Assembly: GCF_000003195.3 (NCBI RefSeq)
Contig: NC_012873.2
Coordinates: forward strand, 24,029,317 to 24,093,316
DNA: 64,000 bases
Direction of reading: 5' to 3'
Source of the DNA: Sorghum bicolor
Lineage: Eukaryota; Streptophyta; Magnoliopsida; Poales; Poaceae
Each line of letters starts with the position of its first letter. The stretch's first letter is position 1. Below, one piece after another: positions 13,035-58,951 of this stretch. The translations under genes were made by a program, and so were the position numbers. A model generated the notes under the pieces. It saw nothing but the letters and a program-made list of their open reading frames with translations, was not told the origin of the DNA and searched no databases.

Positions 13035-15541
13035 ATGCCGACGCATATTGGGCCGATAAAATTGCTGAAGTAATGAGGGAACAATTTGGGATAAAACCCA
13101 AAGTCAACACTTACTCTTATCGGACACCGTATCCTCCTGCATATGATTTGATCCCGCTTCCACATTGGTACAAGGTACCGGATTTTACCAAATTTTCCGG
13201 GCAGGACGATACGTCAACCATGGAGCATGTCAATAGGTTCATCATTCAATGCGGAGAAGCTGGTAACAGGGACGAATTGAGGGTTCGTCTATTTTCATCA
13301 TCATTATCTGGATCGGCCTTTACTTGGTTCACATCATTACCTCCCAACTCAGTGATTACTTGGGCTGATCTAGAGAAACAATTCCACAAATACTTCTTCT
13401 CCGGGGTTCATGAGAAGAAGATCACCGACTTGGTCAAGTTGAGACAGCGCAATGATGAATCAGTTGAAGGTTTCGTGCAGAGGATACGGGAAGTTAAGAA
13501 TAAATGCTACAGTCTGGTTCTAGATGATCGGCATCTAGCCGATTTGGCTTTCCAAGGTTTATTGCCACACATCAGGGATTAGTATGCTTCTCAGGAGTTT
13601 GAAAGCTTAAGTCATTTGGTGCAGAGGATTTCTGATCAAGACGTCAAGCCTTTCGAGCCCAAAAGAGCATGGAACAAGAAAGTATCATTTGTTGATGAAG
13701 CAACGAGCTCCGATTCCGATGAGGAACCAGTCATCGGCTTGGCAGAGTGGGTCAAAAACAAGAAGCCGATGTCTTGTCCTTTTGGGCAAAAAGAACCAGA
13801 GAAGTTCGCTTTCGACACCGCTAAGGCCGATAAGATATTTGATTTTCTACTCTAGGAAGGTCAGATCAAGCTGTCTTCTAATCACGTGATCCCATCGGCT
13901 GAGGAGTTGAAGAGGATGAGATATTGCAAGTGGCATAATGCAACTTCTCATGACACTAATGAATGCAAAGTTTTCAGACAGCAGCTGCAATCGGCAATAG
14001 AGTCTGGGAGGATTAAGTTTGACAGTTCCAAGACCCAGAAGCCGATGAAGATAGACCAACATCCTTTCCCGACAAACATGTTGGATGTCAAGGGGAAGGC
14101 CAAGGTCTTAACATCGGAAACAGCCGAGAAAAGTGCATCGGTAGATCCTCAGCATGAAGTTACTACTGCCGATGCAAAAAGTAAGGGTTTAGTCCAGGAA
14201 GGAACCAGTTCGGGTAGGCCCCCTCGGTCTGGTATCGTTATAACTCATAGAAGACCTCGAGAGAACTGGCAGCAACGGGAAAATCGGTATCGGCGCCAGC
14301 ATGAAGATTATCGACGGGAGGAAGAAAGACGCCGACAGGAGTGGAATCGGCATAGAGATCATTGGAACTGCCCGTTCTTCATCCATTGTTGGGAGGAAAA
14401 TATTAAGCTTCCTACTGTCAGAGACTGCCCTGAGTGCAATGGTTATGATCGATACGACAGGACTGATCGGCGTTATCATGATGACAATCGGCGATTTGAT
14501 GGGCCGATCAGAGGAAGAGCATCGGTTCATGATCGGCTGGGGGGCAGGCTTAGCGTGCACGATAGGCATGGTGATCATGTCCAATATTTTCCCAGGAACC
14601 AGGAAGAGCTCGAGGAGATGGCTAATGCGCGAGTTCCCGATGAGTTTATATTTTGCAGAGATGCTAACACGTATCGTATGGAGTCAAGGGAGAACCGACG
14701 CCCGGCAGTAAGGCAAAAGCCACTCCCTCCATGGTGTCCTGAAGGGTTGACCAAGACACAGAAAAGGAGATTGCAGCGTGAAAGACAAGAGGAGCTAAAC
14801 AAGGGCGAAAATTCTGGTCAGTCTGGAGATCAGCAGCAATCAGATCCTAAGAAGGGAGGTCCATCGGCAGGAGTTAACATGGTCTTTATGTTACCGATGG
14901 AGTTTCTTGCACCATCTAGTGATGATGAGTTGGAATTTTCCGATCAGATAGCTCAGCTGGCTCTGGATCCGATGACGGCTATCTTTGAGAAACCTGCCGA
15001 TGACGAGAGACAGCATCTCAAAGCTCTGTTCGTCAAAGGAAGGGTTGATGGGCAGCCAATGACCAAGATCCTAGTTGATGGTGGAGCTGCTATTAATATT
15101 ATGCCATATGCAGTATATCGGAAGCTTGGGAAAGGGGATCAGGACTTGACCAAGACCGATATGATGCTCAAGGATTTTGAAGGAAACGTGTCTCCAGTCA
15201 AAGGAGCAATATGTGTGGAGTTGACCATCGGCAGCAAAACCTTGCCAACAACTTTCTTCGTGATCAGTGGAAAGGGTGCTTATAACTTATTGTTGGGAAG
15301 AGATTGGATTCATGCCAATTGTTGCATCCCGTCTACAATGCACCAATGCCTGGTTCAGTGGGTAGGCAACAAAATTGAGATTGTCCCAGGAGATTCTTCT
15401 TATGTGATTGCATCAGCAGAGGCGGATACCTATGAGAGGACTAGGTGCATTTCAGGGGAAGTTTGGGAGAAGGATTTTCTCAAAGTTGCCGATTACGAGA
15501 TTCCACCGATCCAAGCAGTCGGTTCTGACGACGGTTTTTAA
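13035..15541 (+). pseudogene. Tat1 gag-protease (5' end lost to the Tek1 insertion)
   Basis: One frame runs from the Tek1 boundary to a TAA at 15539-15541. It starts inside the capsid (HWYKVPDFTKFSGQDD, FTWFTSLPP) and continues with a knuckle-like CKWHNATSHDTNEC (near 13927). A basic RE/RR-rich linker at 14220-14360 follows, then a protease with VDGGAAINIMP (near 15079) and LLLGRDWIHANCCIP. DGG in place of DTG/DSG is seen in Tat proteases. In-frame stops lie at 13580-13582 (TAG) and 13853-13855 (TAG, probably from CAG). The 5' end of gag lies to the left of Tek1 outside the window. Confidence 0.87.
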
Positions 15542-18500
15542 TGGATAGGTTCGCTGATGATGGAAAATTAGGCCAGGGATTCACATCGGCCGATGATTTG
15601 GTAGAAGTAGATATAGGTAGTGGTGATAAGCCTAGGCCTACTTTTATTAGTGCTAAGTTAAATCCTGAGTGTAAGCAGCAATTAACCAATTTGTTAAAGG
15701 AATATAAAGATTGCTTTGCTTGGGATTATACCGAGATGCCTGGTTTAGACCGATCAATTGTTGAACATCGGTTACCCATCAAGTCTGGATTTCGGCCACA
15801 TCAGCAGCCAGCTCGCCGATGTAATCCTAATATTCTACCTGATATTAAGGCCGAAATCACTAAGCTTATTGAAGCTAAGTTTATTCGGCAGTGTCGGTAT
15901 GCCGAATGGATTTCCAATGTCGTTCCGGTTTACAAGAAAAATGGGAAGCTTCGGGTGTGCATTGATTTCAGGAATCTCAATAAAGCTACGCCGATGGATG
16001 GATACCCAATGCCTGTTGCCGATCTGTTGGTTGACGCCGCTGCTGGTCATCGGGTCATCAGCTTTATGGACGGCAATGCAGGATACAATCAAATATTCAT
16101 GGCAAAGGAAGATATTCCAAAAACCGCATTTAGGTGTCCTGGTCATGTTGGGTTATTTGAATGGATAGTCATGACCTTTGGGTTGAAAAATGCTGGTGCT
16201 ACTTATCAAAGAGCCATGAATTTTATATTTCATGAGTTCATCGGCAAGCTGGTGGAAATCTATATTAATGATGTGGTGGTTAAGTCTGGGGATTTCTCAA
16301 AGCATCTTGCCGACTTACAAAAGGTGTTGGAGTGCACAAGGAAGCATGGGTTGAAGATGAATCCCAATAACTGTGCATTTGGTGTATCGGCAGGGCAGTT
16401 TCTTGGTTTCATGGTACATCAAAGGGGGATTGAAATTAGTCGAAGATCTATTGATGCCATCAATAAAATAGTGGCCCCTACCAACAAGACTGAGCTCCAG
16501 TCCTTGATCGGCAAGGTAAAGTTTATCAGGAGATTTATATCCAATCTGTCTGGTAAGATTCGTGCTTTCAGTCCTCTCCTTAAGTTGAAAGCTGATCAAG
16601 AGTTTATTTGGGGAAAAGAGCAGCAGTTGGCTTTGGATGAAATCAAGAAATATCTAGCGAATCCTCCAGTTCTAATTCCACCTCAGCAGGGAAAGCCCTT
16701 CAGATTGTATTTGTCTACCGACGGGGCGGTTATCGGTTCAGCTTTGATTCAAGAATTTGAAGGAAAAGAGCGTGTAATTTATTACTTAAGCAGGAGATTA
16801 ATTGATGCTGAGACCAGGTATTCGGCCATTCAGAAGTTATGCTTATGCTTATATTTTTCGTGTATTAAATTGAGGCACTATTTATTATCGGCCGAATGCA
16901 CTGTTGTTTGCAAAGATGATGTGGTCAAAAACATGCTATCTATGCCGATTATGAGTGGTAGGATCGGTAAATGGATTTTAGCACTGTCAGAGTTCGATCT
17001 GCGTTACGAATCGGCTAAGGCAGTTAAAGGACAGATTATGGCTGATTTTGTGACTCAGCATTACGGTGTAGTGGAGGCCTTGGAAATTGTGCCCTGGACA
17101 CTTTTTTTTGATGGATCTACATGTGACCGGGGGGCAGGAATCGGCACTGTATTAGTTTCCCCTAAGGGGAGGAAGTATGAATTTTCCTTGCCGATTGTTG
17201 CTAGATCGACAAATAATCAGGCTGAGTATCAGGGCTCTGATCAAGGGATTGGAGTTGTTAAGAGAAGTTCGTGCTGATGCTATTGAAATTTTTGGGGATT
17301 CTATGTTGGTTATAAATCAGTTGGCCGGGAGTTATGAATGCCGAAGTGAAGTTCTCATAACTCATTTCGAGAAAAGCATGCGGCTGTTGAAAGAATTCAA
17401 AGATTTCCGATTAGAGCATATTCCTCGATTGCATAATGAAGAGGCCAATCGGTTAGCTCAGCATGCCTCAGGATATCAGCCTATGATTAATGCAATATCG
17501 GTAAACGGTGCCGATGATTGGAGGAAGGAAATTATTGATTATCTAAAGGATCCATCCAAGAAAGTTGAAAGACGAGTTCGATTTCAAGCAACCAAATATG
17601 TGCTCCTCGAAGATGAATTGTATTATCGAACTATTGATGGAATTCTTCTCCGATGTTTGGGTGATGATGAAGCTAGGAGTTTGATGGGAGAGATCCATGA
17701 AGGGGTATGTGGAGCACATCAGTCGGCTTTCAAGATGAAATGGATGATTAGAAGGAATGGATATTTTTGGTCGACTATACTTGAGGATTGCTTTAAGTAT
17801 TTCAAGGGATGTCAAGGTTGTCAAAAGTTTGGTAACATTCAAAGAGCACCCGCATCGGCTATGAATCCTATTATCAAGCCTTGGCCGTTTCGGGGATGGG
17901 CTATCGATCTGATCGGCCAGATTTATCCACCATCTAGTAAGGGGCATAAGTTTATTTTGGTTGCCACTGATTATTTCACTAAATGGGTTGAAGCTATTCC
18001 TTTGAAGAAGGTTACCTCGGCCAATATGATTGATTTTGTGAAGGAACACATTATTTACCGATTTGGGATTCCTCAGACAATTACTACCGATCAGGGCACT
18101 ATGTTCACATCGGGGGAGTTTGATGAATTCGCAATCGGTATGGGGATTAAAGTGTTGAATTCTTCTCCTTATTATGCTCAAGCCAATGGGCAGGCCGAAG
18201 CATCTAACAAAGGGATTATCAAGCTTATTAAACGAAAGGTTGAAGAAAATCCTAAGCGGTGGCATGCATTGTTAAATGAAGCACTGTGGTCTTATCGGAT
18301 GGCTTGTCATGGATCAACCAAGGTGTCACCCTATCAATTGGTGTATGGACATGATGTAGTGTTGCCTTGGGAGATTAAGGCCGGATCCAGGCGATTATCT
18401 TTTCAAGATCGGTTAACCGCCGATGATTATGCTACTTTGATGACCGATGAGTTGGATGATCTAGCAGGGCATCGGTTAAAAGCTTTAATGAGTATAGAAG

Positions 18501-18775
18501 AAAATAAGAAGAGAGTTGCTAGATGGTATGATAAGAAAGTGAAGGCTAAGGAGTTTGTCGATGGGGATTTGGTATGGAAATTAATTTTGCCAGTCGGGAC
18601 TAAAAGTACGAAGTTTGGAAAGTGGTCTCCTAATTGGGAAGGTCCTTATCGGATAAGACGATCGGCTCCTGGTAATGCCTATATTCTTTAAACTCTCGAA
18701 GGAGTTGAATTTCCTAGAGCATTAAATGACAAATATTTAAAGAAGTACTACCCCAGCATATGGGTCGATGCATAA
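15541..18775 (+). pseudogene. Tat1 pol: RT, RNase H, archaeal-type RNase H, integrase
   Basis: Starts at an ATG overlapping the gag-protease stop (TAATG, 15539-15543) in a different frame. RT shows RVCIDFRNLNKATP and DGNAGYNQIF, but the active-site box is YINDVVV: codon 243 (16267-16269) is Asn where Asp is normal, so the copy should be RT-dead. The first RNase H (about 16680-17000) is followed by a second with FFDGSTCDRGAGIG and NNQAEYQ (17106-17230), the extra RNase H of the Tat lineage. An extra G near 17234 shifts the frame there. Integrase has GAHQ with GCQGCQ zinc ligands and catalytic AIDLIGQ, TTDQGT and GQAEASNK. A TAA at 18689-18691 precedes the last 28 codons. Confidence 0.9.
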
Positions 18776-18918
18776 AAGTTTAAATGCCGATAACACTCCT
18801 ATCGGCTGGATTCAAATGTTTGGGGGCTTAGTGTTTCAAAAGATGCCGATAACAGTCCTATCGGCTAGACTAAAGGCTGAGGAAGCAGGAAAGCACAGAT
18901 ATGATGCCGATGAAAACT
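18776..18918. other. Convergent spacer between pol and the antisense gene
   Basis: 143 bases between the pol stop and the antisense stop. It holds two near-copies of tgccgataaca-tcctatcggct (18785 and 18844), each a GCCGAT...ATCGGC inverted pair with about ten bases between. They could fold as small hairpins and might end either transcript (inference). Confidence 0.6.
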
Positions 18919-21900
18919 TTATGTGTTAAGCAGCGCCTGGATTGCTGATATAGCACGTAGCCGGATTTGGTTGGCTGCTTCTATCTCCTTAATGTCATCA
19001 TCGGCAGAACCCTCTATCGGCTTCAATTTCTTCTTCAGTTGAAGTGCCTTGCGACCATGAACGTTTCGCTCGTGCTCAAGGAGCTTGATGGTCTCTGGCA
19101 GTTGGCTCTCTTCCTGTTGAGCTTGGGATAAGGCGTCCTCCACTTCCTTGAGTTCTGCCAACAAGGATTCTCTTCTTGCCGATAGATCGGATATTTTCTG
19201 CTTCAGCGCGTCTCCTGAAGATCTCAGGATGCCGATGTTCTTGTGCTTCTCATCAGTCAAGAGCTTCTCTTTCCTCATTTCGTCGGAGAGTTGAGTCTGA
19301 GCAGCTCTATCGGCAGGACGCCGAGAAGCTCTCTGGTACTGCAGCTGGCGACTCTCCAAATGAGCGGCTTGGAAAAGGGTTTCTTCAACATCGGCTGGGA
19401 TTTGGCCTCTGAGAGTTCTGAACAGGGTCTTGGTAGGGTCGGAGTCGTCAACCAACTGCGCTGTGTCCTGGTGAAGGAGAGCTGACAATTCCTCCAGTCT
19501 GGTCCTGATCTCTGCCGATGTAATGCCAACTGTCTGAGAAGAGCTTGCCTCTTCGCCTTCTTCTTCAGAGAGATCGATGGCGAAGGAGAACAGGCTATCG
19601 GGAGAATCTTGTTCCTGGGAGGGAGAGCAAAGTTAGTTCATACTCAGAGAATCGGCAAATAATACTGGTAAAGGTTGGGTGGCTTACTTGTTTCAAGGCT
19701 ATTTCCTGCCTTTGTCTGAAAGATGCCAATGGAGATGCAGGTTGATCGGCTAAGGTTGCCGATGGGACGATATCAACTGAAAGAAGACAGAAAGGGTTAT
19801 GAGACTAAATAAGAATAAGTTTATCGGCAGAAGTATTGTTGAAATATGTTACCTGGAGGAGGAACAACAGTTGTCTGAATCGGGGGAACCGCCGATGATA
19901 TAATTGGACCTGCCGGGCCAGTTGTTTGTTCACCCACGTCGGCTGATGTACCTTCTGTTTGAGGTTCTTCCTGCTGGGGTTCTTCCATCTGTGGTGCTTC
20001 CTACATCGGTTGGGGAGATGGTGCTTGCTGTGTCTGAACTCCTGGAGAGGAAGGAGAGGACTCCACTGGAATTGGAGACACCGGAGGAGGAGGGGGACTT
20101 GCCACTTTCTGGCGCTTTGTTCCAGCCTTAGCACCTTTGGTGCCCTTTCTCTTTGGCTGGCTAGACTGGGGGGCATCGGCACTTTGGCGCTTGGCTTTTG
20201 CCGATGCACCGGTTTGCTGCAACAACGAAAAGGAGTTTATAAGCGCAGATGTAGCCGATATAAAGATGGTCAGTGTAAAAGAAAAAGATTTGACAAATTG
20301 CCTTGAAAGCCTGCGCCACAGTGGAAGCAGCTACCGTAGGTGATGTCTGAGCTCTCTTGGTGGTGACTTTCCTAAGGCGCACACCCCGATGCACGACGAA
20401 AGCCAGAGTGGGAGCATTGTGGCCGATTGAGGAGATCGGGCCTGATGGAAACAAGTCAATCAGCTTGCCACTCCTACTAACCGATGGGGGGATGTTGTCA
20501 ACCTGCAAAAAGAATACAAGGGTAAGCTACCGATGGAAATAGTATTGAAAAATGAAACATCGGCTTAAAATACTTACAGTGTCATCGGGGACTTCGTATT
20601 CGGGGTCGATCATGCCGCGGTATGAGAGGGCCGATCTGCAGAATAGATGCTCTTTCCATTCTGCCCACCATAGCTTGTATGCCTGAGTAATAAAGGCAGC
20701 TGGAACCCATTCTGACAGATCTACATCTGTATCGGCATTTGGTGGTAGTTGGGCTACTCGAATCCATTCAAGAAAGTTGGTGATGGGTTCTCTGGGTTTT
20801 ATCACATCGGCTTAAGGAAGTGCAATCGGCAACTGGCTGAAAGCTAGCTGACGGGCTAAGGCCGATGGATTGTAAAATTCGTAGGTTTGGGGAGAGGTTT
20901 TTGTGCTACCAAAGAAGTTCACTGGTATGGCTCTGCGAGTCACAATTGCCATCATCACCTCATTATCCCTGTCAAGAGCTTCATCAAATGGATTGAAGGT
21001 TAGAGGGAGCATGCTGTCTGGGTCATCATAAGCCAACCATGGTCGTTCATCTCTGGCCAATCCCTCATACAGAGTCTGGAAGATTCGGCCGATTTGATCT
21101 GGATTACTCCCTGAACCAGGTAGAACTATGGCAGCTTCGCCAAAGTTCAGGGGGGCACGTGTTGCCGATTCCTCTTCGTCCAACACATGATTTTCGGCTA
21201 TATCTCTTGGGAAATGCTGTGTGAACAAGTTGAAGTCAAGGCGCTTATGCAAGTGCAGATTGAGCCACATGTTAATAAACCACCAGGGACCTCCCAAGTT
21301 GCCGATAGACTGACCAAGCATGAGTTTCTGGGCTACCTGATGGAGAAGATGGTAAGCAGCGCCAAGCAAGTATCGGCCGAGAGGAAATTGACCACCGTTA
21401 GCCAGTCTCTCTGCTGCCGATAGATAGACGGAAGTCGGTCCTGCCGATCGACCACAGAATACGAACTTGTCCAGCCACATGTTCAGAAAGGTGGTTTGTT
21501 CCTTTATGGTGACAGGCCCCTTCCCACGGTACTTCTGAATGTACCCCAACCAACCGCCGATAGCGCGAGTCTCCACTTTGGCACTAGGAGCGGTATCAAA
21601 GAAGTGGGTGCTATCGGCAGAAGAGACGTCTAGACCAGTGAGCATAGCTACATCGGCAAGAGTGGGAGAAACAGGGCCGTGGCCAAAGACGAAAGCATTA
21701 AGGATATCTGACCAAAAATAAGACGTAGCTATCAACAGCGACTCGTTCTTGTGCATATCGGCAATAGATAGCCTGATGCATTGGGCTAGCTTCCTTTCAC
21801 CCCACTGGACTTCATTCGAATTGCTGACCCTCAAGAACCAGTCTTTCCACCCTACAGTAGGGCTGGGCCAAGAGCGAAAGGTGTCTTTCCATAGGTCTAA

Positions 21901-22186
21901 AGAAAAATTTTCGGCTCTAAAGGGAATCCTGTTGGTTTCTGCATTGATAAGGTCAGTTGGATCTGGATCCCCTAGAGGGCCGAGACATTGGAGGTGTGGT
22001 TGATCGGTGGGGATGACGATTTTGTTGGACAACTCCTAGTGTTTTGGGGAATAAAAAAAATAAAATACAAAGAAAAAAGAAAAGGAAGATATTCAGTAAG
22101 ATGAATCGCGGATGAACAGGAATACGAGAAGAATACAGGAGATGAGATGGAGATCTGACCTCAGGGACGACGAAGCCAATGGCCAT
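18919..22186 (-). pseudogene. Antisense six-exon gene in Tat1: plant mobile domain (PMD) protein with coiled coil
   Basis: Gene model on the minus strand. Exons: 22186-22160, 22035-20578, 20502-20302, 20216-19853, 19776-19688, 19614-18919 (2835 nt, 945 codons). Introns are 124, 75, 85, 76 and 73 nt with GT..AG ends, except intron 3, which has GC..AG (AAG/GCAATT). Exon phases fit throughout. The ATG at 22184-22186 (aagATGg context) is the first after a TATA box. Exon 2 resembles the aminotransferase-like plant mobile domain (SYFWSDILNAFVFGHGPVSP, LADVAMLTGLDV, GWLGYIQKY). Exons 3-4 are basic and Pro-rich with a possible NLS (QPKRKGTKGAKAGTKRQK). Exon 6 is a coiled coil (SDLSARRESLLAELKEVEDA). 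In-frame stops at 20812-20814 and 20001-20003, each one C-to-T step from Gln, make this copy a probable pseudogene. Function is unknown; cellular PMD proteins of Arabidopsis (MAIN, MAIL1) affect transposon silencing. Confidence 0.85.
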
Positions 22187-22337
22187 CTTGTCGTGAAGAG
22201 AATGTTTGAGGGCACCGGAGTTGATGAAGAGGAGTGCTTGTCGGAGGTCTTGAAGGTTGTGAATGGCGCCGCCGCTGGAAAAGTAAAAGTAGGGATGGTG
22301 AAATGATGTGATGGAGAAGGAGTACCCGAGAAGGAAC

Positions 22338-22345
22338 TATTTATA
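22338..22345 (-). promoter_or_regulatory. TATA box of the antisense PMD gene
   Basis: Minus strand TATAAATA (in CCTATAAATAG), 150 bases before the ATG at 22186, with no ATG in between. Transcription should start near 22310 and leave a C-rich leader of about 120 nt. It is placed where a plant core promoter should be and reads away from the Tat1 3' LTR. Confidence 0.72.
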
Positions 22346-22830
22346 GGATAAAACGGGCAAGGGCAAATCTGACTTATCTCTTTGCCGCATCCGAGAAACC
22401 CAAGGATGCTCAGGTAGATATGGTAACAGTTCGCACGGTAATCAAGGGATTGTGCAGGTGATTTGACGGGGAACGGTCATTACCTGGAGATATTTTACTG
22501 TGCGGGATCTTCTGGTCGGTCCATCGGCAGCATACTGTAACGGTCATATTGCCGATGGGCGGATAAAGTAAAGGTAGCCATTTGTATGAACGTCCTGATT
22601 AGTCCATCGGTATATCTTCGTAACGGTAATATTGCCGATGTGCGAATGAGAAGGAAGTGCCCGTTCAGGAAGTTGAGGATTTCTAGGAATCTGCAGGAGA
22701 ATAGGATCGGAGTTGTTTGGATTGAGGTTGTCAGTTACCAGATTAGGAGCATTAATTGCGGGAAAAGGCATCATTACTGCAGAAAATTTCGGAGCATTAA
22801 TAGTTTCATACTCCGAAATTGGGGGGCATG
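22346..22830. promoter_or_regulatory. Promoter-proximal region of the antisense gene and end of Tat1 internal region
   Basis: Non-coding. It contains an imperfect direct repeat with an 83-base period: 22519-22567 and 22602-22650 share gtccatcgg, gtaacggt and atattgccgatg. The polypurine tract AAATTGGGGGGCA (22816-22828) closes the region, immediately before the LTR. Confidence 0.65.
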
Positions 22831-23533
22831 TGTTGACACCGTTTTTGCGCACGTGTCCAGGAAGGCCGGATGAGATGACAGTATGTGGTTTACAGGATGA
22901 GTTGCCGATGAGGATGGTTGCCGATAAAGGAGAGGTTGGACGTGACTAAGTTTACAGGTGATGATGTGTCTGTGCCGATGACTATGATGAAGAGGTCTGC
23001 CGATGACCATGGCAAAAGAGTCTGCCGATGATACAGAGGGGGAGCCTGGAAGCTGCTGACCGGGTTGTGGAAGAGTTTCAATTTGTCACGAGGGATAGCT
23101 GAGTTATTTCCTTATTTGTTTAAGTCGTTTTGTATACGGATTCCGTGTAATTTGGAATTCGAATTCTGGTCGTGTTTAGTTATAGCTCTTTGAGAAGGGT
23201 ATAAATATTGACCCTAGGGCTTTGTAATGAGACATCTATCAATCAATCAAACACACGTTTTTACTCATATTCCAGCATCTACTTTTCGACGACTTCGTCA
23301 TACTTTTTTCCCTTTTATTACGAGTTCTTAGGAATTCGTCGATTTAAGCTCGGCGTGTTCTCAAGTTCCGCGTGAGTACCTCTTAGCCGTGACATCCGGG
23401 CGCATCGCTGTTGTCAGGACTAAAGTATTCGAGTTATCACCTTTGCCGATAGTAAGGTCAAATCGGCTGGCACGCCTTAACATTTGAATTGGGTATTAGC
23501 CCTTTGTGTTTGCAGATCAGTTTTGCATCAACA
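22831..23533 (+). repeat. Tat1 3' LTR, 703 bp
   Basis: Begins TGTTGACACCG at 22831, just after the polypurine tract, and ends TTTTGCATCAACA at 23533, giving matching TGTTG/CAACA ends. The U3 part holds five GCCGAT copies within about 120 bases (22903-23027). A TATA box TATAAATA lies at 23200-23207 with a plausible start about 30 bases on. The 5' LTR lies left of the window. Confidence 0.88.
23200..23207 (+). promoter_or_regulatory. Tat1 LTR TATA box
   Basis: TATAAATA in gaagggtataaatattgacc, about 370 bases into the LTR, on the sense strand of Tat1. Confidence 0.65.
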
Positions 23534-34643: not shown

Positions 34644-35186
34644 CCTGCGGGATCAAGTCTCCTAACCGGAGGCTTGCTCCTAGAATTCTTCAGTATTTCG
34701 ACTTCTAAATTCTAGTAAGTTCTTTATTTTATTGTTCTTTGGTTTATGAGTCTACTTTGATATCTTCGCGTAGAGTTTAGAGTAACCACCTCTAGCGTAA
34801 ACGTGGTGTTTGGGCTAGGATACTCATAGATATCCCCTGTCTAGCCGGACCGTGGTAGTAGTGAGGAACGTGACATTTCCAAGTTACCTTTGTAGCCCAT
34901 AATCCCTTTAGCAGGTTCGATAGGGTTTGCTGGTGTGGGTCGAACATCCTCTATGGTGTCTAGATTCCATGAGCCTCCCCAATAGAACAGTAGATCATCC
35001 TTACCAAGGTTAGAACGAGGGTGCAGTTGAAGTCTACTCTATACATCACTCACATCGAGTGATAGTGGTTGTAGCCTAAACATTAGTAGTAATAGACCTG
35101 GTTAGTCAGATGCACGCTTCTCATAGTGCTCACCGATATCCGTGCGCTTGCGGATTAATTCCTGATTGCGTTACCAAATATCAACA
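34644..35186 (+). repeat. Ath1 3' LTR, second part
   Basis: Resumes with the target duplication cctgc and gggatcaagtctcctaacc, colinear with 41010-41598, and ends CCAAATATCAACA at 35186. Both halves total about 1.18 kb, close to the 1231 bp of the solo copy. Confidence 0.85.
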
Positions 35187-36069
35187 TACGGAAAGAGCAT
35201 CGAGCGAATTAGCAAGCCTCGAGCGTAAAAGCGTTCCCCGCCGCCTGTCGTTGGTATGGGAGCTAGAGCATTTAATGCGACTGCCATGCTCCCACCTAAC
35301 CCGATAGTCACGGGAAGCGTGATAGGGGAACAAGCACCAGTCACATCTCCACCTTTTCCAGCTTTATCCTCAAGATTGAGAAAAGTACAACTCGGCATAG
35401 TGCAGCATGTGTAATATCCCATCACGACACCCCTCGAGATGTTCAAGGCTAGCGCTCCTACATAACAAAGCCGCCCGTGCCGCCTGACCCTCGAGCAGGC
35501 ATGCTCCTTCCTAGGGAAGGATCGAGTGATAGAAGTCAGCGCTTCAACCACTTCGGACATGGTGATTGTCACGACGTACGAGCGTGCTCACGCCCAAGCC
35601 AATACCAGACGAAGTACAGAAGATGAGTTCAAACAGCGCATGCGCCATCATCACCAAAGTACCCTGTAACAAGACGGCTCGAGGCCACGCCGGTACGGAG
35701 GCCTCGAGTAGGTCATCACCATACCCCTATCGAGCCCTACTCAAACACCTACATCCTGTAACTTAGGCCTCCCCTTGGAACTATAAAAGGGGACGCTGAG
35801 GATGATATCAAACAAGACATCCAGAGTACACAGTTCACACTCCACACAATCGGCTAGGACTTAGAGCCCTCAGCTTCATTCACTTGTCTTCGCCCCTATA
35901 CAAGCACTTAGGTGCAAGATAATACACACTCTCCCCCCGCTAGACGTAGGGCCTTCTTTAGCCTGAACCAGGATAAATCTTTGTGTCACTCTTGCATAAC
36001 CATTCACAAAAGGGAGCACGCATACAAATTCACTCGTTGGTGTTACCTCCCAGGGTCAAAACATCGACA
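35187..36069 (+). repeat. Tat2 5' LTR, right part
   Basis: Carries a TATA box TATAAAA at 35782-35788 (ggaactataaaaggggacgc) and ends aaaacatcgaca at 36069 right before the PBS. The left part should lie beyond the left edge of the window, on the far side of Ath1. Confidence 0.7.
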
Positions 36070-36071
36070 GT

Positions 36072-36089
36072 TGGCGTGCAAGGTAGGGA
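36072..36089 (+). other. Tat2 primer binding site
   Basis: tggcgtgcaaggtaggga two bases after the LTR end. It resembles the tggcgcgccaggtaggg site of grass Tat elements; I did not assign the tRNA with certainty. Confidence 0.6.
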
Positions 36090-36189
36090 TCCTGCGTGTT
36101 ACTATTGATTCCCATCTTTTTTCGGATGGCTACCCATGTTTCGCCGATCCCACGCTCCACGGTGATCTGGTTTGGGAGCCTTGAGTTCA

Positions 36190-38512
36190 TGTCCACCGGC
36201 TGCGGCTATGACATGATCCTGCTCTCAGTGAGAGGACCAGAGGGGCATGCGTCATGCCCACACGATTGAAGGCTCCATGGCGGCCTCACCACCAAGAAGG
36301 CGTGATCAGCACTGCCACCACCCCACTGATGTTGCACGATCGTCGCCCCGTATAGGAAGGGCAACGGTGGAAGAGTCGACAGCTCTCCGCACCAAGATAG
36401 CAGACACGACGGCCGGTCAGCAGAGTGGCTGCACGACGGCACCAAGGGGCAGCTTACCCCGTGCCCCGTTGCCACCATCTGCCCTATTGCCACATGGCCT
36501 GTTCGCCACAAGGCGTATGCTCCCATTTGGCTTGGACAACGCTACGACGTCGCTCGCCAGGACAATATGTCCGGGCACCAGCACGTGCGTGGATCGGCCA
36601 CTAGCCCTCCCACGTGACATGGAGACGCATGGCAAACTCAACATGAGGCTGAGTGTCCAGGTTTTCTCCAGATACGCCAGCCTCGACGGTTGGGACCTAG
36701 ACGGTACACCCTCACCACGCTCAGGCAGTAGTTGGCAGAGGAGTGGCACGGCTGCTTCTACACCACTGAACTAGACCCTGACTCCGAGTCCGACAGCTAT
36801 GACGCTTCGAGGAAGTGCTTCAACGTCGATGGGGCTGTGGCCACCGATGACACGGAGGACGCCGCCACCGGTGCTTGAGCTCCAGCAGCAGGGGAGATCC
36901 TAGGACACCTGAGAACCAAGGGCAGGTGGATCCGCCACCTCAGGACGACATGGCTCCACAACTTGCGCAGCTATGGGAGTTGAAGGCCAAGCTTGACGAG
37001 GACCGAGAATGCCTCAGCCAGCTAGAGCAGGCCCTCGAGCGAGACCAACCGCACCCGCATGGTGGGGGCACACGTGGACACGCTCGAGACGTGTACCGAC
37101 AGATCGTTGGGGATGAGGAGCCTGAACTGCTCATCAGCCGTTTCGCTCGAGCTGATCAGAACATCATAGCAGCAACCATGCTGCTACGCAACATGCCTGA
37201 GCCCTCAAACTCCCAGGCATGACACATTCAAGACTAGGTGCAAGGTTTGCTCCACGTGGCGGTGGCTCAACAAGCAGAGATCTCGGCCTCTCGATGTCGA
37301 GGGCGGCTATAGAAAAGCACCCTGAGCCAGCCCGAGATGAGAGGGAGGTGTCAGTTCACCAAGAACCGCCACCTCGAGGCAAGAAGACAACGCCGATCTA
37401 GGAGGACCTCGTCGACAATCATGAGCCTCACAACGCTCGATGCGACATCAACGAGCATCAATGCCACAAACATGGTGACGCTGAGGAACGGGGCTACAGC
37501 ACCCACCGCAGCGGACGCTACGATAGGGATGAGGACCGGATGGCTCCGAAGCCACCGGGACCTCGAGTCTTTAGCAGGGCAATCCGTAGCACGCGCTGCT
37601 AAGCCCATTCCGACCCCCGACCAGCATCGCCAAATACAACAGCGAAACCAATCTAGGGCTATGGCTGGTGGATTTTCAGCTGGCATGCTAGTTGGGAGGC
37701 GCTCGAGGAGACGATCAAGCCATCATCTGGCAGCTTCCGCTTTTCCTCTTTGACACGGCTCACAGGTGGCTCGAGGAACTATCGGCCAACCAAATCCACG
37801 ACTAGACCAACCTGGTCCGGGTGTTCGATGGAAACTTCAAGGGGACCTACATCCGCCTCGACAATTCATGGGACCTCAGCAACTGCAAGCGGAAATCTAG
37901 AGAATCTATCAGATAGTATGCTTGACGCTTCTCCAAGCAAGGCACGGAGCTCCCACACATCCCCGACCACAACATCATTCTAGCATTTGTCTCAGCGTTT
38001 TCTTTAGCCATGAGAGCGACAAAGGGAAGGCACCAACCGATGATGACGAAGGCCCTAGCAGGGGGCCCAAAAAGAACAACAACAAGAAGAAAGGATGGCA
38101 GATCAAGCGAGAGGCCATCGACGATGATTTCATCGCCGCAGTCGAGCGCAATAAGCCTCGAGGCCCTCCAGAAGGGGTCGTCTTCGACAAGATGCTCAAG
38201 GAGCCCTGCCCTTACCACAAGGGAGGGTCTAATCAAAAGCTTGAGGAGTGTCGCATGCTGAAGAAGTACTTTGACAGCCTTGGGCTGAAGAAGGACGACC
38301 AAAGGAAAGACAAAAGCGACGACAAGGTTGGAAGCAAAGACGATGAGGGGTTCTCCACCGTCCATGATTGCTACATGATCTACGGTGGGCCCTCGATGCA
38401 GCTCACGTCACGCCAATGCAAAGAGAGAATGCCGGGAGGTTTTTGCGGCAAGGATGGCAGTGCCACGGCACCTCAATTGGTCGAGCACCCCCATCACCTT
38501 CAATCGCGATGA
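36190..38512 (+). pseudogene. Tat2 gag, decayed
   Basis: No long open frame, but Gag is clear in pieces. The capsid core reads SIAKYNSETNLGLWLVDFQL, WLEELSANQIHD, NFKGTYIRLDNSWDL and RFSKQGTE across 37610-37945, with stops at several points, including one after IHD where Trp is usual. The knuckle region (38040-38400) has CPYHKGGSNQKLEECRMLKK. The stretch 36190-36870 before it is leader or N-terminal gag with stops in all frames. The family resemblance is to Huck/RIRE2-type Gag. Confidence 0.75.
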
Positions 38513-39360
38513 CCACCCCGACAGGGTTGTCGCCCCTGGCGTCTATCCGCTTGTCGTCGACCCCATCATTGTCAACACTCGACTCTCAGAGGTATTGATG
38601 GATGGCAGCAACAACCTCAACATCATCTACCTCGAGACTCTTGATCTCCTAGGCATCGAGAGAGCACAGCTCCATCCTAGCATGGGCGGCTTCCACGGCG
38701 TCGTACTAGGGAAGAAGGCATTGCCAGTAGGTCGAATTGACCTGCCGGTCTGTTTTGGCATGGCAGTCAACTTCAGGAAGGAGACCCTAACTTTTGAGGT
38801 GGTGGGTTTTTGAGCCACCTATCACACCTTCATTAGATGACCGGGGTACACCAAGTTCATGGCGATCTCCAACTACACCTACCTCAAGCTGAAGATGCCC
38901 GGGCCCAAGGGAGTTATCACCATCAGCTCCTCTTACGAGCACACATATGAATGCGACGTTGAATGCGTCGAGTACGGAGAGACGGTCGAGAACACCACCG
39001 AGCTTGCCTCAAAGCTCGCGGCCCTTGCCACCGAGGCTCCAGAACCAAAGTGCCATGCGGGCCCAAAGAAGGTCCCGCTCGACCCCGACAACTCTGATGG
39101 CAAGGTGCTGACGATCAGGGCCAACCTCAACCCCAAATAGGAGGCCGTGCTCGTCGACTTTCTCCGTGCGAACGCCGACATGTTCGCATGGAGTCCCTCG
39201 GATATGCCTGGCATAACGAGAGAAGTCGCCGAGCACTCCTTGGAAATCCAAGCCGGTTCCAGACCAGTGAAGCAACGCCTGCGCGCCGCTTCGACAAGGA
39301 GAAGCGTAAGACCATTGGCGAGGAGGTCCACAAGCATTTGACAGCCGGATTCATCAAGGA
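38513..39360 (+). pseudogene. Tat2 protease and start of RT
   Basis: Protease-like VDPIIVNTRLSEVLMDGSNN (DGS where DGG/DTG is usual) to about 38830, then a linker (AISNYTYLKLKMPGPKG). The RT N-terminus follows with ADMFAWSPSDMPGI and GSRPVKQRLR, then GFIKEV, where the element breaks at 39360. Stops at 38811-38813 and near 39138, and a frameshift near 39285. Confidence 0.75.
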
Positions 39361-40243
39361 GGTTTATTGGATTTGTTGCTTGCCCAAATGTTTGTTCCAT
39401 TTAGTGAAAGTGTTCTGCATATTACATATTTAATTAAACTAGTATTTCTGTAACATGCAACAGCCTAATGAATATATATATTTAATTAAACCAGTTCATC
39501 TTTATAACCTTTCCATTATCTCAAGTAGGATGTTTTGCTTAGATTAATATAGCTATTTGTTTCACTGATTGCAGAAAATATTTTCTATTGACTACTGTAT
39601 TCCTGCAGATCGGAGATTCATCGGCTATAGATGTGGCTCGTGTGGCTCCCACTTGAAGTCTCATTCCAACTTCTAGATACGTCTAGCTTGCTCCAGCTTG
39701 CCAGCTTGCATCAACGTGCCATAGTGCAATGTTGATGGGATGTTTTATGAAACTTTGTATGTTCACGGATGAAAATCTGATGTTGGATGGAAATTTACGA
39801 TTGTTATTTTTTATAATGCGCTGCTAGATGTATATGATCTATGTATGTGGGCTGTACATGTTGTGGTAGTGGGTTGAAAATTGTGCTGCAAATTGGCTAC
39901 AAAATTGGGCTGCAAAATGGCTGCAATTGGGCTGTTAAAATGGCTAAAACAGAAAAACAAAATTGTTGCATTTTGGCTAAAAATTGGCCCATCATTGAAT
40001 GTGGCCAGTTAATAAATGGGCTGAGGTATTTTTCACGTCATCATTCATGTAAATATCCAAGATGATACGGCAATTCATCCGTGACGGTTATTTTTCATCA
40101 TAGGAAATGGGCTTGGGCTAGGCTAACTAGGCTTCGGGCTATACCGTGACGGTTTGAAACCGTCACCGATTTCATATTGTGACATTTGTTTTCTCCCTGC
40201 CATGTCAGCTACCATGTGGCAAGGCCAACGATTTTGTGACAAT
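39361..40243. mobile_element. Probable end fragment of a CACTA-type DNA transposon
   Basis: AT-rich, no ORF. The right part has short repeated words (aattgggctgcaaaatggct-like, 39880-39960) and repeats of gtgacggtt: one at 40081 and an inverted pair 40146-40155/40157-40166 with a one-base loop. Such subterminal gtgacggttt/aaaccgtcac repeats are typical of grass CACTA elements. No CACTA terminus is visible, because Ath2 starts at 40244. It could also be a different DNA transposon. Confidence 0.42.
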
Positions 40244-46100: not shown

Positions 46101-47756
46101 GAGATATGATTTTTGCAAGAAAGCCAAAAATCAGGATTTTGAATAAAGAAAAGGAGGGAAATAGAGTGACGCTGACAGTGGACCCCGCCTGTCAGGGTCG
46201 TCTTCCTCACGGCCGAGGCGACTTTCGCCGGCGATTTCTCCGCGACGGCGAGGTCTCCGGCCAAACCAAGGGCACCAACGTGATCCCCAGACTCTAGCGA
46301 CTCGATTGACCCCCTTTTCCCCACGGCGGAGCCACCGGAAAGGGCTCGCCGTCGACGATGGCGGCTCGGCGGAGGTGCTCGGCGTTACGCTGGAGCCCTC
46401 AGGCCGGTGGAGCGCGACCTAAGACCTTCTACAGCACCAGCGAACTACGGCGGAGCTTCCTAGGTACGCGGCTTGGCTTGAAACTTCGTGGAACACGCTG
46501 GCCACGAGAGCACCCATCTCCGACGGAAACACGGCGGCGCTGCGCATCGTGTCCGGCGACGGAGAGCTCGGTAGAGCATCTACCAAGTGGCGCAAACGCT
46601 CGCTAAGGACCTACTCTACCTCTATGACCTGACCAGAGGAGACTAGAGGCTTCACCGGGCTCGGCATTGGGCTCGCCGGAAAAGATGATCACGGCGACCC
46701 GATTTGGGGGAAGAAGAGATTGGCGGCTCACCGGTGGATTTCACGGCGAGATGGTGGGTGGAGAATGGAGAGCGGTTCACGGCGGAGCTGTGGGTGGAGT
46801 TTGGTGAGTAATGGCGCAGCAAGGAACGCGCGCGAGCTCGCCGGAGTAGGCTCGCGACGGAGAGCTCACGGCGGCCGCGTTTCTGGCGAGAGTTGCGAGG
46901 CAGAGCGGAAGTGGACGCGTCCACTCTGCTCGGGGCGTCGCCGTGGACGTCATGCACGCGCTGGGAGCTGACGAGCGGGGCCATCACCGGCGTACGGACG
47001 ACATCTGGCGGACAGGTGGTGCTCTGGCCATCCCCGACGGTGAGCTCAGCTTCGATTCAGAGAACACGGCAACCGACTGACAGAGCGACTTCAGCAATGG
47101 ATAACTCCCAATCCAGCCCAAGATAGAAGATGATACAATTGACAAAGTTGGAGTTTCAATCGAGTTCTATAGCTTTGTCAACAAGAGCAAAACCCAGATC
47201 GGCCGGGATTGAGAGATATAGAGTTTTCAAAATCGATCAAGCAAACTGGTTTCGTTCCAAGACTTAGAAAATTTTCTAAGTGTTGGAAACAGCCCCAAAT
47301 CTGCTTTGTGGGTCACTTTTGAGCTATTTGTGATCATTTTCATGAGATGGCCATAAAACAACTTTTGTTCCTTATAAAAGTTGCTACAACTTTGCTGTAG
47401 AAAGTTTTGACATGCAAACATTTTATGAAACACTTTTTGAAAGCCTAAGAAAAAGAGGTTTCTAGGGCCTATTTACACAAGTATGACTTAAGGACATATT
47501 TTGGAGAAGTGATCAAATGAACATTGTTCCCAAGGTTAAGTTAAGCATAGATACACTAATTACCAAGGCATAGAGCACAAACACAAGCATGGTTCACTCA
47601 AACATAAGCATAGGAAGCCTATTTAAGCAATTTAAATCACATTTTTGCATAGAATGACATGGCTCAAGATAGATGATGATCATGACATGTTTTGAGTAGA
47701 TGATAATGCTCATGCTATGCACATGATCAATGCAACCATAACACTGGGGTGTTACA
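43175..47756 (-). repeat. Tek2 3' LTR, 4582 bp
   Basis: tgtcacagaaccgacc to ggggtgttaca. The GC-rich block (46180-47100) is homologous to but strongly diverged from that of Tek1 (shared ggaccccgcctg, ggcgaggtctc, ccaagggcacca), while the AT-rich flanks are much closer. No gene supported. Confidence 0.93.
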
Positions 47757-57400: not shown

Positions 57401-58951
57401 CAGGGTCGTCTTCCTCACGGCCGAGGCGACTTTCGCCGGCGATTTCTCCGCGACGGCGAGGTCTCCAGCCAAACCAAGGGCACCAACGTGATCCCCAGAC
57501 TCTAGCGACTCGATTGACCCCCTTTTCCCCACGGCGGAGCCACCGGAAAGGGCTCGGTGCTCGGCGGAGGTGCTCGGCGTTACGCCGGAGCCCTCAGGCC
57601 GGTAGAGCGCGACCTAAGACCTTCTACAGCACCAGCGAACTACGGCGGAGCTTCCTAGGTACGCGGCTTGGCTTGAAACTTCGTGGAACATGCTGGCCAT
57701 GAGAGCACCCATCTCCGGCGGAAACACGGCGGCGCTGCGCATCGTGTCCGGCGACGGAGAGCTCGGTAGAGCGTCTACCAAGTGGCGCAAACACTCGCTA
57801 AGGACTAATCTACCTCTATGACCTGACCAGAGGAGACAAGAGGCTTCACCGGGCTCGGCATTGGGCTCGCCGGAAAAGATGATCACGGCGACCCGATTTG
57901 GGGGAAGAAGAGATTGGCGGCTCACCGGTGGATTTCACGGCCAGATGGTGGGTGGAGAATGGAGAGCGGTTCACAGCGGAGCTGTGGGTGGAGTTTGGTG
58001 AGCAATGGTGCAGCAAGGAACGCGCGCGAGCTCGCCGGAGTAGGCTCGCGACGGAGAGCTCACGGCGGCCGCGTTTCTGGCGAGAGGGGCGAGGCAGATC
58101 GGAAGTGGACGCGTCCACTCTGCTCGGGGCGTCGCCGTGGACGTCATGCACGCGCTGGGAGCTGACGAGCGGGGCCATCGCCGGTGTACGGACGACATCT
58201 GGCGGGCAGGTGGCGCTCTGGCCATCCCCGACGGTGAGCTCGGCTTCGACTCAGAGAACACGGCAACCGACTGACAGAGCGACTTCAGCAACGGATAACT
58301 CCCAATCCATCCCGAGATAGAAGATGATGCAGTTGACAAAGTTGGAGTTTCAATCGAGTTCTACAACTTTGTCAACAGGAGCAAAAGCCAGATCAGCTGG
58401 GATTGAGAGATATAGAGTTTTAAAAATCGATCAAGCAAACTGGTTTCGTTCCAAGACTTAGAAAATTTTCTAAGTGTTGGAAACAGCCCCAAATCTGCCT
58501 TGTGGGTCACTTTTGAGCTATTTGTGTTCATTTTCATGAGATGGCCATAAAACAACTTTTGTTCCTAATAAAATTTTCTACAACTTTGCTGTAGAAAGTT
58601 TTGACATGCAAACATTTTATGAAACACTTTTTAAAAGCCTAAGAAAAAGAGGTTTCTAGGGCCTATTTACACAAGTTTGACTTAAGGACATATTTTGGAG
58701 AAGTGATCAACATGAACATTGTTCCCAAGGTTAAGTTAAGCATAGATAAACTAATTACCAAGGCATAGAGCACAAACACAAGCATGGTTCACTCAAACAT
58801 AAGCATAGGAAGCCTATTTAAGCAATTTAAATCACATTTTTGCATAGAATGACATGGCTCAAGATAGATGATGATCATGACATGTTTTGAGTGGATGATA
58901 ATGCTCATGCTATGCACATGATCAATGCAACCATAACACTGGGGTGTTACA
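54418..58951 (-). repeat. Tek2 5' LTR, 4534 bp
   Basis: tgtcacagaaccgacc to ggggtgttaca, colinear with 43175-47756. GC-rich block at 57390-58270. The frames seen in both copies are not supported as genes. Confidence 0.93.

What the first reader, a model, noticed from the sequence alone, without database searches (positions are those of the whole stretch)
13035..23533. GCCGAT/ATCGGC is about 17-fold over-represented across Tat1, in all contexts
My eye count gives about 86 copies of GCCGAT or its complement in 10.5 kb; a random hexamer pair predicts about 5. Tek1 (13 kb) shows 2 and Tek2 (15.8 kb) about 3. Copies occur in gag, pol, integrase, the antisense exons and introns, the convergent spacer and the LTR. 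Sense copies use all three codon phases (Ala-Asp, Pro-Met/Ile, x-Arg), so protein sequence cannot explain them. The motif contains CpG, which methylated plant transposons normally lose. This looks like a nucleotide-level signal kept by selection, such as a protein-binding or packaging code. I know of no description of it.
Basis: partly seen in the sequence, partly recalled or inferred. Interest (0 to 1): 0.92.

Follow-up and report, generated by a model that had tools for sequence, protein, structure and literature searches.

The report
Retrotransposon's own dispersed six-letter DNA code
A large retrotransposon family in a plant genome (likely sorghum) carries one six-letter DNA word, 86 times in this copy, through genes, spacers and promoters alike; selection keeps it even at silent codon positions, and it is predicted to be the mark by which the element's own antisense protein finds the element's DNA.

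Summary
Confirmed, and stronger than claimed. GCCGAT/ATCGGC occurs 86 times in 13035-23533 (44 forward, 42 reverse); dinucleotide shuffles give 4.2, and codon shuffles that keep every protein give 10.7 against 57 in the coding pieces. It is the top hexamer in the window copy and in all 57 other same-genome family loci held, 29 of them found by protein alone. Selection keeps it: at 75-79% nucleotide identity 61% of copies survive against 20% for matched CpG hexamers; codon third positions are 95% identical inside the word and 69% outside in gag-pol (86% group), 92% against 57% in the antisense gene. Flanks are unrelated, so most copies arose independently.

The element is a Tat-lineage Ty3/gypsy retrotransposon whose antisense gene encodes a Plant Mobile Domain protein. 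Word clusters lie upstream of both TATA boxes.

Best mechanism (inferred): the antisense protein reads the word on its own DNA and shields or activates the element. This works like VANC/VANDAL anti-silencing, but with words spread through coding sequence rather than packed in non-coding tandem repeats. Binding and anti-silencing are untested. A neighbouring, probably Tat-lineage, fragment has a different excess word, CTCGAG (14 against 1.4).

The parts
13036..23533 (.). Tat1: part of a Tat-lineage Ty3/gypsy retrotransposon from inside gag to the end of the 3' LTR; carries 86 GCCGAT/ATCGGC and 23 ACCGAT/ATCGGT; its 5' LTR and leader lie upstream of the window, cut off by the nested Tek1
13036..13582 (+). 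gag (Retrotrans_gag PF03732), its start cut by the Tek1 insertion; 4 words
13886..15541 (+). gag C-terminal part and aspartic protease (PF13975); 14 words
15541..17277 (+). reverse transcriptase and RNase H (PF00078, PF17919, PF17917); 13 words; active-site motif reads YINDV here where most of the 16 aligned relatives read YIDDV, so this copy's RT is probably dead
17177..18691 (+). second RNase H (PF13456) and integrase (PF17921, PF00665); 5 GCCGAT and 8 ACCGAT from 17279 on
18786..18865 (.). convergent spacer: two 21-bp blocks, each an inverted pair GCCGATA-7-TATCGGC, 59 bp apart (one of the few local duplications)
18919..19488 (-). probable 3' part of the antisense gene; E/K/L-rich, coiled-coil-like by eye; 6 words
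20001..20225 (-). probable part of the antisense gene, basic proline-rich stretch (KRKGTKGAKAGTKRQK), nuclear-localisation-like by eye
20527..20805 (-). antisense gene, continuation of the PMD reading in another frame in this copy (relatives read on in one frame, by eye); 3 words
20812..22032 (-). antisense gene, Plant Mobile Domain (PF10536, E 6.3e-15); 12 words; proposed reader of the word
22338..22345 (-). TATA-like box (TATAAATA on the - strand) in front of the antisense gene
22523..22639 (.). word cluster upstream of the antisense TATA-like box: 3 GCCGAT and 1 ACCGAT in a degenerate tandem pair; 2-4 words in each of the 9 of 10 family 3' pieces that align there
22904..23029 (+). U3 word cluster: 5 same-strand GCCGAT 171-296 bp upstream of the LTR TATA box; 4-5 words in each of the 9 of 10 family 3' pieces that align there
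23200..23207 (+). LTR TATA-like box (TATAAATA)
22831..23533 (+). 3' LTR, 703 bp, 98.3% identical to the 5' LTR (12 differences); 7 words

Best explanation
GCCGAT is a family-specific self-word that selection keeps along this retrotransposon's DNA, and the element's antisense Plant Mobile Domain protein likely binds it there and would thereby shield the element from silencing or switch it on. Shown: the excess, its presence in every family locus examined, strand symmetry, mostly independent origins, constraint at silent sites, turnover with density held, clusters upstream of both TATA-like boxes, and purifying selection on the PMD frame (codon positions 1+2 89% identical, third positions 57%, outside the word). 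In the model, words in U3 and in the antisense promoter control the two transcripts, and words spread over the body bring the protein to coding DNA too.
For: Excess and nulls. Family-wide: top hexamer in 58 of 58 family loci L003-L060 (L031 is the window's own copy) at 4.0-10.6 per kb; 29 of them (L032-L060) came from a protein search that did not use the word. Genome-wide GCCGATGN8GCCGAT: 1353+1355 places against 6+5 for the pattern read backwards. Selection, pooled against the window copy over 56 loci: word kept 612/692, 170/206, 583/706, 160/213, 110/181 as identity falls (>=95, 92-95, 88-92, 80-88, 65-80%), one-CpG/four-GC control hexamers 3273/4057, 758/1233, 2328/4120, 432/1276, 203/1004. 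Codon third-position identity inside/outside the word .949/.692.793/.595.917/.574.875/.595.933/.799.986/.791 in six groups (16 loci, inside n 32-285). Gains in the six groups 33, 13, 21, 13, 43, 14 against control means 0.96-3.85 and control maxima 22, 13, 19, 5, 22, 14. DNA-level: 44/42 strands, 13-28 against 15-25 per piece in the 20 pieces. Degenerate like a binding site: T before and G/A after preferred, ACCGAT the strongest secondary word and the commonest single-change fate of a lost word (24, against 18 and 13 for the two CpG transitions and 16 for C2>T). Independent origin: flank identity .256 against .253 for random places. PMD. Precedent: element-encoded VANC proteins bind short motifs dense in their own element and demethylate it (PMC5735166, parts 1-3 of 6 read); Grande's antisense protein is nuclear with its own promoter (PMC7264820, passages); Retand antisense TRP28 is predicted to bind DNA (PMC11963269, abstract and Discussion); host PMD proteins MAIN/MAIL1 are tied to TE silencing and a promoter motif (PMC7156037, passages).
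Against: No binding, methylation or expression data. The PMD model is modest (pLDDT 64.5) and had no match in solved structures (0 of 31 listed with E<=0.001), so a DNA-binding role for PMD gets no structural support. VANC motifs sit mainly in non-coding tandem repeats; these do not. No test could link PMD divergence to word change: searches for distant PMD families in this genome did not complete. A protein-only proxy for relatives was inconclusive: motif-compatible dipeptide gains 66 against 57.8 expected, and retention at such positions no clearer than for reversed dipeptides. Three of the 56 pooled loci, all at 96% identity or more (L023, L034, L037), keep the word slightly less often than the controls. 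MAIN/MAIL1 promote silencing, so the sign of a PMD effect could be opposite.
Confidence: 0.45

Rival explanations
1. The word is read by a host DNA-binding protein (an AP2/ERF-like activator or a chromatin factor) that the element has come to exploit along its length.
For: The word is close to the DRE/CRT core RCCGAC (recalled) and is clustered upstream of both TATA-like boxes; host factors drive many plant LTRs (general knowledge).
Against: The DRE core GCCGAC is not notably in excess (5 against 2.4; 4 against 4.8 under codon shuffle) and T6>C is a rare fate of the word (4). A promoter factor does not explain 57 words in coding pieces.
Confidence: 0.2
2. The word lets the element's antisense protein (or Gag/integrase) pick out and carry the element's own double-stranded cDNA: nuclear import, compaction or integration, not chromatin.
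For: Strand symmetry and whole-element spread fit a cDNA mark; a basic, NLS-like stretch and a coiled-coil-like part; a role of antisense proteins in the path of the preintegration complex has been raised (PMC7264820, passages).
Against: Clusters upstream of both TATA-like boxes, kept to about 78% identity, point to transcription or chromatin; a cDNA mark would not need them there.
Confidence: 0.15
3. The word is an RNA-level signal (packaging, export, RNA-protein binding or evasion of small RNAs).
For: It covers the transcribed length of the element.
Against: Both orientations are similarly common in the sense genes (17/22), in the spacer plus antisense gene (19/18) and in relatives; a single-stranded RNA signal would be oriented. 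The LTR is one-sided (6/1).
Confidence: 0.05
4. Composition bias, codon use, spread by tandem duplication, or chance.
For: A few local duplications exist (18786/18845, 22551/22634, 22999/23024).
Against: Dinucleotide and codon nulls fail by a wide margin; flanks are random; silent sites are constrained.
Confidence: 0.01

Closest known systems
VANC21/VANC6 of Arabidopsis VANDAL elements (sequence-specific anti-silencing; PMC5735166 parts 1-3, PMC10398659 passages)
   Same: A mobile element carries a short word at high density that is rare elsewhere, differs between families (YAGTATTAY; AGTTGTCC/AGTTGTAC), and encodes an accessory protein that in VANDALs binds it.
   Different: VANDALs are DNA transposons; VANC has DUF1985/DUF287, not seen here. 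VANC words lie mainly in non-coding tandem repeats in one orientation and spread with the repeats; here they are dispersed, unoriented, in coding DNA too, with unrelated flanks.
Tat-lineage (Ogre/Retand) LTR retrotransposons with antisense 3' ORFs (PMC6317226, PMC11963269, PMC7264820)
   Same: Second RNase H before integrase, long pol-3'LTR region, antisense gene; PMD is reported in 57% of Ogre elements.
   Different: No dispersed word is mentioned in the passages, abstract and Discussion I saw of these papers; Retand's domain is TRP28 (PF04195), not seen here.
MAIN/MAIL1 plant mobile domain proteins and the 'DOWN' motif (PMC7156037, passages)
   Same: PMD proteins linked to TE control and to a promoter motif.
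   Different: Host genes that support silencing; whether they bind the motif is open; the motif's letters were not in the text I saw.
Bacterial DNA uptake sequences (recalled, no call)
   Same: Short word dispersed through coding and non-coding DNA on both strands that marks DNA as self.
   Different: Another kingdom, another purpose (natural transformation); analogy only.

Membership tests
Tat-lineage Ty3/gypsy LTR retrotransposon | Ty3/gypsy gene order gag-PR-RT-RH-INT | tested here: met
   Pfam domains in order
Tat-lineage Ty3/gypsy LTR retrotransposon | second RNase H (aRH) between RH and INT | tested here: met
   PF13456 at residues 18-97, before PF17921 and PF00665, in ORF 17177-18691; first RNase H in the preceding ORF
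Tat-lineage Ty3/gypsy LTR retrotransposon | two LTRs and target-site duplication | tested here: met
   LTR pair 98.3% identical over 703 bp; AGTAT on both outer sides by eye
Ogre-type Tat element | antisense 3' ORF with Plant Mobile Domain | tested here: met
   PF10536 E 6.3e-15, 19 of 19 members of alignment A1
Ogre-type Tat element | RT phylogeny within Ogre | not tested
   no tree was built
Retand | antisense TRP28 domain PF04195 | tested here: not met
   not among Pfam matches at E<=0.01 of the six antisense ORFs scanned, nor at E<=10 in the 19 members of the PMD alignment
VANC/VANDAL anti-silencing system | VANC protein with DUF1985/DUF287 | tested here: not met
   neither among matches at E<=10 of the 19 PMD alignment members (HMMER's filters drop most weak matches); the other antisense pieces were scanned at E<=0.01 only
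VANC/VANDAL anti-silencing system | family-specific short word dense in the element | tested here: met
VANC/VANDAL anti-silencing system | words mainly in non-coding tandem repeats | tested here: not met
   57 of 86 in the coding pieces tested; flanks random
VANC/VANDAL anti-silencing system | element protein binds the word and removes methylation | not testable with these tools
   needs EMSA, DAP-seq and bisulfite data

The most novel reading that the evidence does not exclude
Tat-lineage retrotransposons write a family-specific self-word through their whole sequence, coding DNA included, and each family's antisense protein reads its own word (GCCGAT here, CTCGAG in the neighbouring, probably Tat-lineage, fragment): a self/non-self DNA code by which an LTR retrotransposon escapes silencing without waking its rivals.
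Probability: 0.3. Interest if true: 0.97.

Novelty: new variant of a known kind. Interest (0 to 1): 0.9.

Why it matters
The antisense genes of Tat retrotransposons are described as of unknown function as late as 2025 (PMC7264820 passages, PMC11963269 abstract and Discussion). A word kept by selection throughout the element turns that open question into a direct binding test. It could also offer a short, orientation-free handle for studying chromatin targeting in a cereal genome.

Tried and rejected
Rejected: chance, base composition, codon use; tandem spread; helical or fixed spacing (CV 1.02; no preferred pair distance by eye); density homeostasis of GCCGAT plus ACCGAT (variance/mean 0.38-1.17, none significant; one correlation of -0.74 at 1.5-kb bins, P 0.045, one of eight bin tests; longest gap of the two words together as expected); RNA signal (strand symmetry).

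Led nowhere: relatives in viral contigs (4 scans), genome contigs (2 scans: only two bacterial-strain contigs with a 32%-identical RT), plasmids and phages (RTs under 60% identity in 3 plasmid records; no match in phages). Protein-only proxy for the word in relatives: motif-compatible dipeptides about 2-fold enriched in Tat1 and its >=75% relatives in PMD and RT (PR 1.58-1.9), reversed controls 0.61-1.34; but new gains only 66 against 57.8, retention no clearer than for reversed dipeptides, and residues at motif codons more conserved than others in PMD and RT (.866/.770.869/.825) but not in PR (.824/.837): inconclusive. Structure and fold search of the PMD frame: no match. Solved structures by sequence: best E 1. 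Papers, ten searches: PMD, VANC, GCCGAT with retrotransposon or transcription factor, extra ORFs, anti-silencing with LTR retrotransposon, hexamer excess, Tat/short motif, PMD/Ogre, sorghum Tat: the listings showed no description of the word; most hits were seen as listings only, and most subscription papers are not in that library. Read: PMC5735166 parts 1-3 of 6; PMC11963269 abstract, passages and Discussion; PMC7156037, PMC10398659, PMC9289625, PMC6317226, PMC7264820 passages only.

Limits of the comparison: L003-L030 were chosen through the word itself, so their density is biased upward; L032-L060 were not, but are the best-scoring 29 of 102 scored PMD matches after the window's own. Several loci are the same copies (L003/L011, L008/L015, L009/L017, L010/L019, and L004/L005/L006/L013/L014). 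In one search, L001, L002 and L031 were left out and L006 (368 bases aligned) was dropped from the pools: 56 loci pooled. Retention is measured against the window copy only; the six groups use 16 loci picked by identity, and gains shared by related copies are counted more than once. In one search (8 far loci) the word ranks 9 of 460 hexamers by retention (216/323; median of the 460, 0.33); the words above it have 8-14 copies in Tat1 or overlap it, but some of those (CCACCA 23/32, ATGAAT 32/47) do not overlap it.
Full report
What is there. GCCGAT or its complement occurs 86 times in window 13035-23533, 44 and 42 on the two strands, against 13 in the remaining 53.5 kb. Dinucleotide frequencies predict 4.3 and 300 shuffles give a mean of 4.2 and a maximum of 11. 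When codons are shuffled among identical amino acids in seven coding pieces, the mean is 10.7 and the maximum of 300 is 19, against 57 observed; no other hexamer departs as far from that null. Piece by piece the excess is clear in protease, RT, PMD and 18919-19488 and weak in the short gag remnant (4 against 1.35) and integrase (5 against 1.36). Under a dinucleotide model the word has z 39.6; in the seven other segments of the window the best word has z 4.9 to 10.8. Copies use all codon phases, follow Poisson spacing, and have flanks no more alike than random places in the element (.256 against .253). They were therefore not spread by recognisable duplication, apart from a few local pairs.

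The element. Pfam finds gag, protease, RT-RNase H, a second RNase H and integrase in order on the + strand, and a Plant Mobile Domain (E 6.3e-15) on the - strand between integrase and the 3' LTR. A second RNase H before integrase marks the Ogre/Retand part of the Tat lineage, and PMD has been found in 57% of Ogre elements (PMC6317226, passages). The 3' LTR is 22831-23533; the 5' LTR lies upstream of the window beyond the nested Tek1 and is 98.3% identical (12 differences in 703), which at a recalled rate of 1.3e-8 per site per year is about 0.7 million years. The antisense gene has its own TATA-like box at 22338, and further - strand ORFs are basic or coiled-coil-like by eye. This copy's PMD frame ends near 20806-20812 and the reading goes on in another frame; of the 102 best-scoring same-genome matches (the window's own included) 93 have no stop in the matched part, and the 101 others lie in open frames of 423-624 codons.

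The family. The window lies in a 709-Mb assembly, by size, contig pattern and some protein hits probably sorghum (inference; no name was given). A protein search with the PMD frame had 5428 first-look candidates, of which 102 were scored, all at 94% identity or more. GCCGAT is the top hexamer in all 58 family loci held, the window's own included, at 4.0 to 10.6 per kb; 29 of them were found without using the word. The pattern GCCGATGN8GCCGAT occurs 1353+1355 times genome-wide against 6+5 for its reverse. Two Ty3-like contigs from bacterial assemblies, as outside controls, have none.

Selection. Compared with the window copy, the word is kept in 612/692 cases at 95% identity and above, 170/206 at 92-95%, 583/706 at 88-92%, 160/213 at 80-88% and 110/181 at 65-80% (in fact 75-79%). 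Control hexamers with one CpG and four G/C are kept in 3273/4057, 758/1233, 2328/4120, 432/1276 and 203/1004. Three of 56 loci, all at 96% identity or more, go slightly the other way. CpGs inside the word are kept in 95, 92, 94, 90 and 76%, CpGs elsewhere in 88, 78, 77, 57 and 51%. In coding DNA, third codon positions inside the word are .949 identical against .692 outside in gag-pol at 86% identity, and .917 against .574 in the PMD gene of the 78% group, which comprises the 3' pieces of the same three copies. All six groups agree in direction. Gains of the word at new positions (33, 13, 21, 13, 43, 14) exceed the largest gain of any control hexamer in four groups and tie in two; gains shared by related copies are counted more than once, and distinct new positions are 14, 10, 12, 13, 13 and 6. 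Among 460 hexamers with at least 8 copies the word ranks 9th by retention in the far loci, below rarer or overlapping words. The word is thus maintained by purifying selection with turnover.

What kind of signal. Similar use of both strands in sense genes, antisense gene and relatives points to double-stranded DNA; the LTR alone is one-sided (6/1). The word has soft edges like a binding site: T before it in 47 of 86, G after it in 36 of 86, with the same preference in the far group. ACCGAT is the strongest neighbour (23 against 3.8), and G1>A is the commonest single change of a lost word (24) although it is not a CpG change, ahead of the two CpG transitions (18 and 13) and C2>T (16). In U3 five copies lie 171-296 bp upstream of the TATA-like box, and a second cluster lies upstream of the antisense TATA-like box. 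Of ten family 3' pieces, nine align there: U3 has five words in eight and four in one; the antisense promoter has two to four.

How it most likely works. The element encodes one extra protein, placed and oriented like the antisense proteins of Grande and Retand, of which Grande's is nuclear (PMC7264820, PMC11963269). In VANDAL DNA transposons, an extra protein binds a short family-specific word dense in the element and strips its methylation, locally at CG and over the whole element at non-CG sites (PMC5735166). I propose that the PMD protein reads GCCGAT in the same way. Against it: the PMD model has no structural match, VANC words are non-coding and tandem, and Arabidopsis PMD proteins MAIN/MAIL1 act in silencing (PMC7156037). 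A host factor or a cDNA-handling role remain real rivals.

A second word. The neighbouring fragment 34900-40242 has CTCGAG 14 times against 1.4 expected (z 10.8, maximum z of 60 shuffles 5.8; 200 block-wise shuffles reach at most 5 copies), with unrelated flanks; the 23 other palindromes tested occur 0-4 times, and ATCGAG (8 against 2.6) and GTCGAG (9 against 2.3) are also raised. Its RT start matches Tat RTs at 41-47% over about 45 residues, but it was compared only with the 360 proteins collected as Tat1 relatives, and its other ORFs had no convincing Pfam match, so the Tat label is probable, not shown. It is one fragment, its relatives could not be fetched, and GC-rich Tek regions also exceed their shuffles (z 7.5 in the Tek1 LTR, 10.5 in the third Tek, where each LTR is counted twice).

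Novelty. Ten literature searches showed no description of such a word in an LTR retrotransposon in their listings; the library lacks most subscription papers.

Noticed in passing
window 34900-40242: Probably Tat-lineage fragment with its own excess word CTCGAG (14 against 1.4), raised ATCGAG/GTCGAG and unrelated flanks: possibly a second self-word.
   Followed up: partly
window 13035-23533: ACCGAT, the secondary word, is concentrated in gag-pol (18 of 23), while the 3' half uses GCCGAT almost alone; three far copies use more ACCGAT in the 3' half (111:30 against 276:27 in six near copies, Fisher P 7e-4, grouping chosen afterwards, L014 left out).
   Followed up: partly
window 18786-18865: Two near-identical inverted word pairs (GCCGATA-7-TATCGGC) 59 bp apart in the convergent spacer between integrase and the antisense gene.
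   Followed up: no
window 46245-46939 and 57453-58133: ACGGCG/CGGCGA excess in the duplicated GC-rich ends of the third Tek element (z about 10, each end counted twice); probably local composition.
   Followed up: partly
L001, L002: Two bacterial assemblies (Solirubrobacter and Geminicoccus, both CPCC strains) hold contigs of 9-10 kb with a Ty3/gypsy-like RT, 32% identical to Tat1 in both: likely contamination.
   Followed up: no
G000, whole assembly: The PMD-bearing family looks very large (5428 first-look candidates, 102 scored); 93 of the 102 listed matches have no stop in the matched part.
   Followed up: partly
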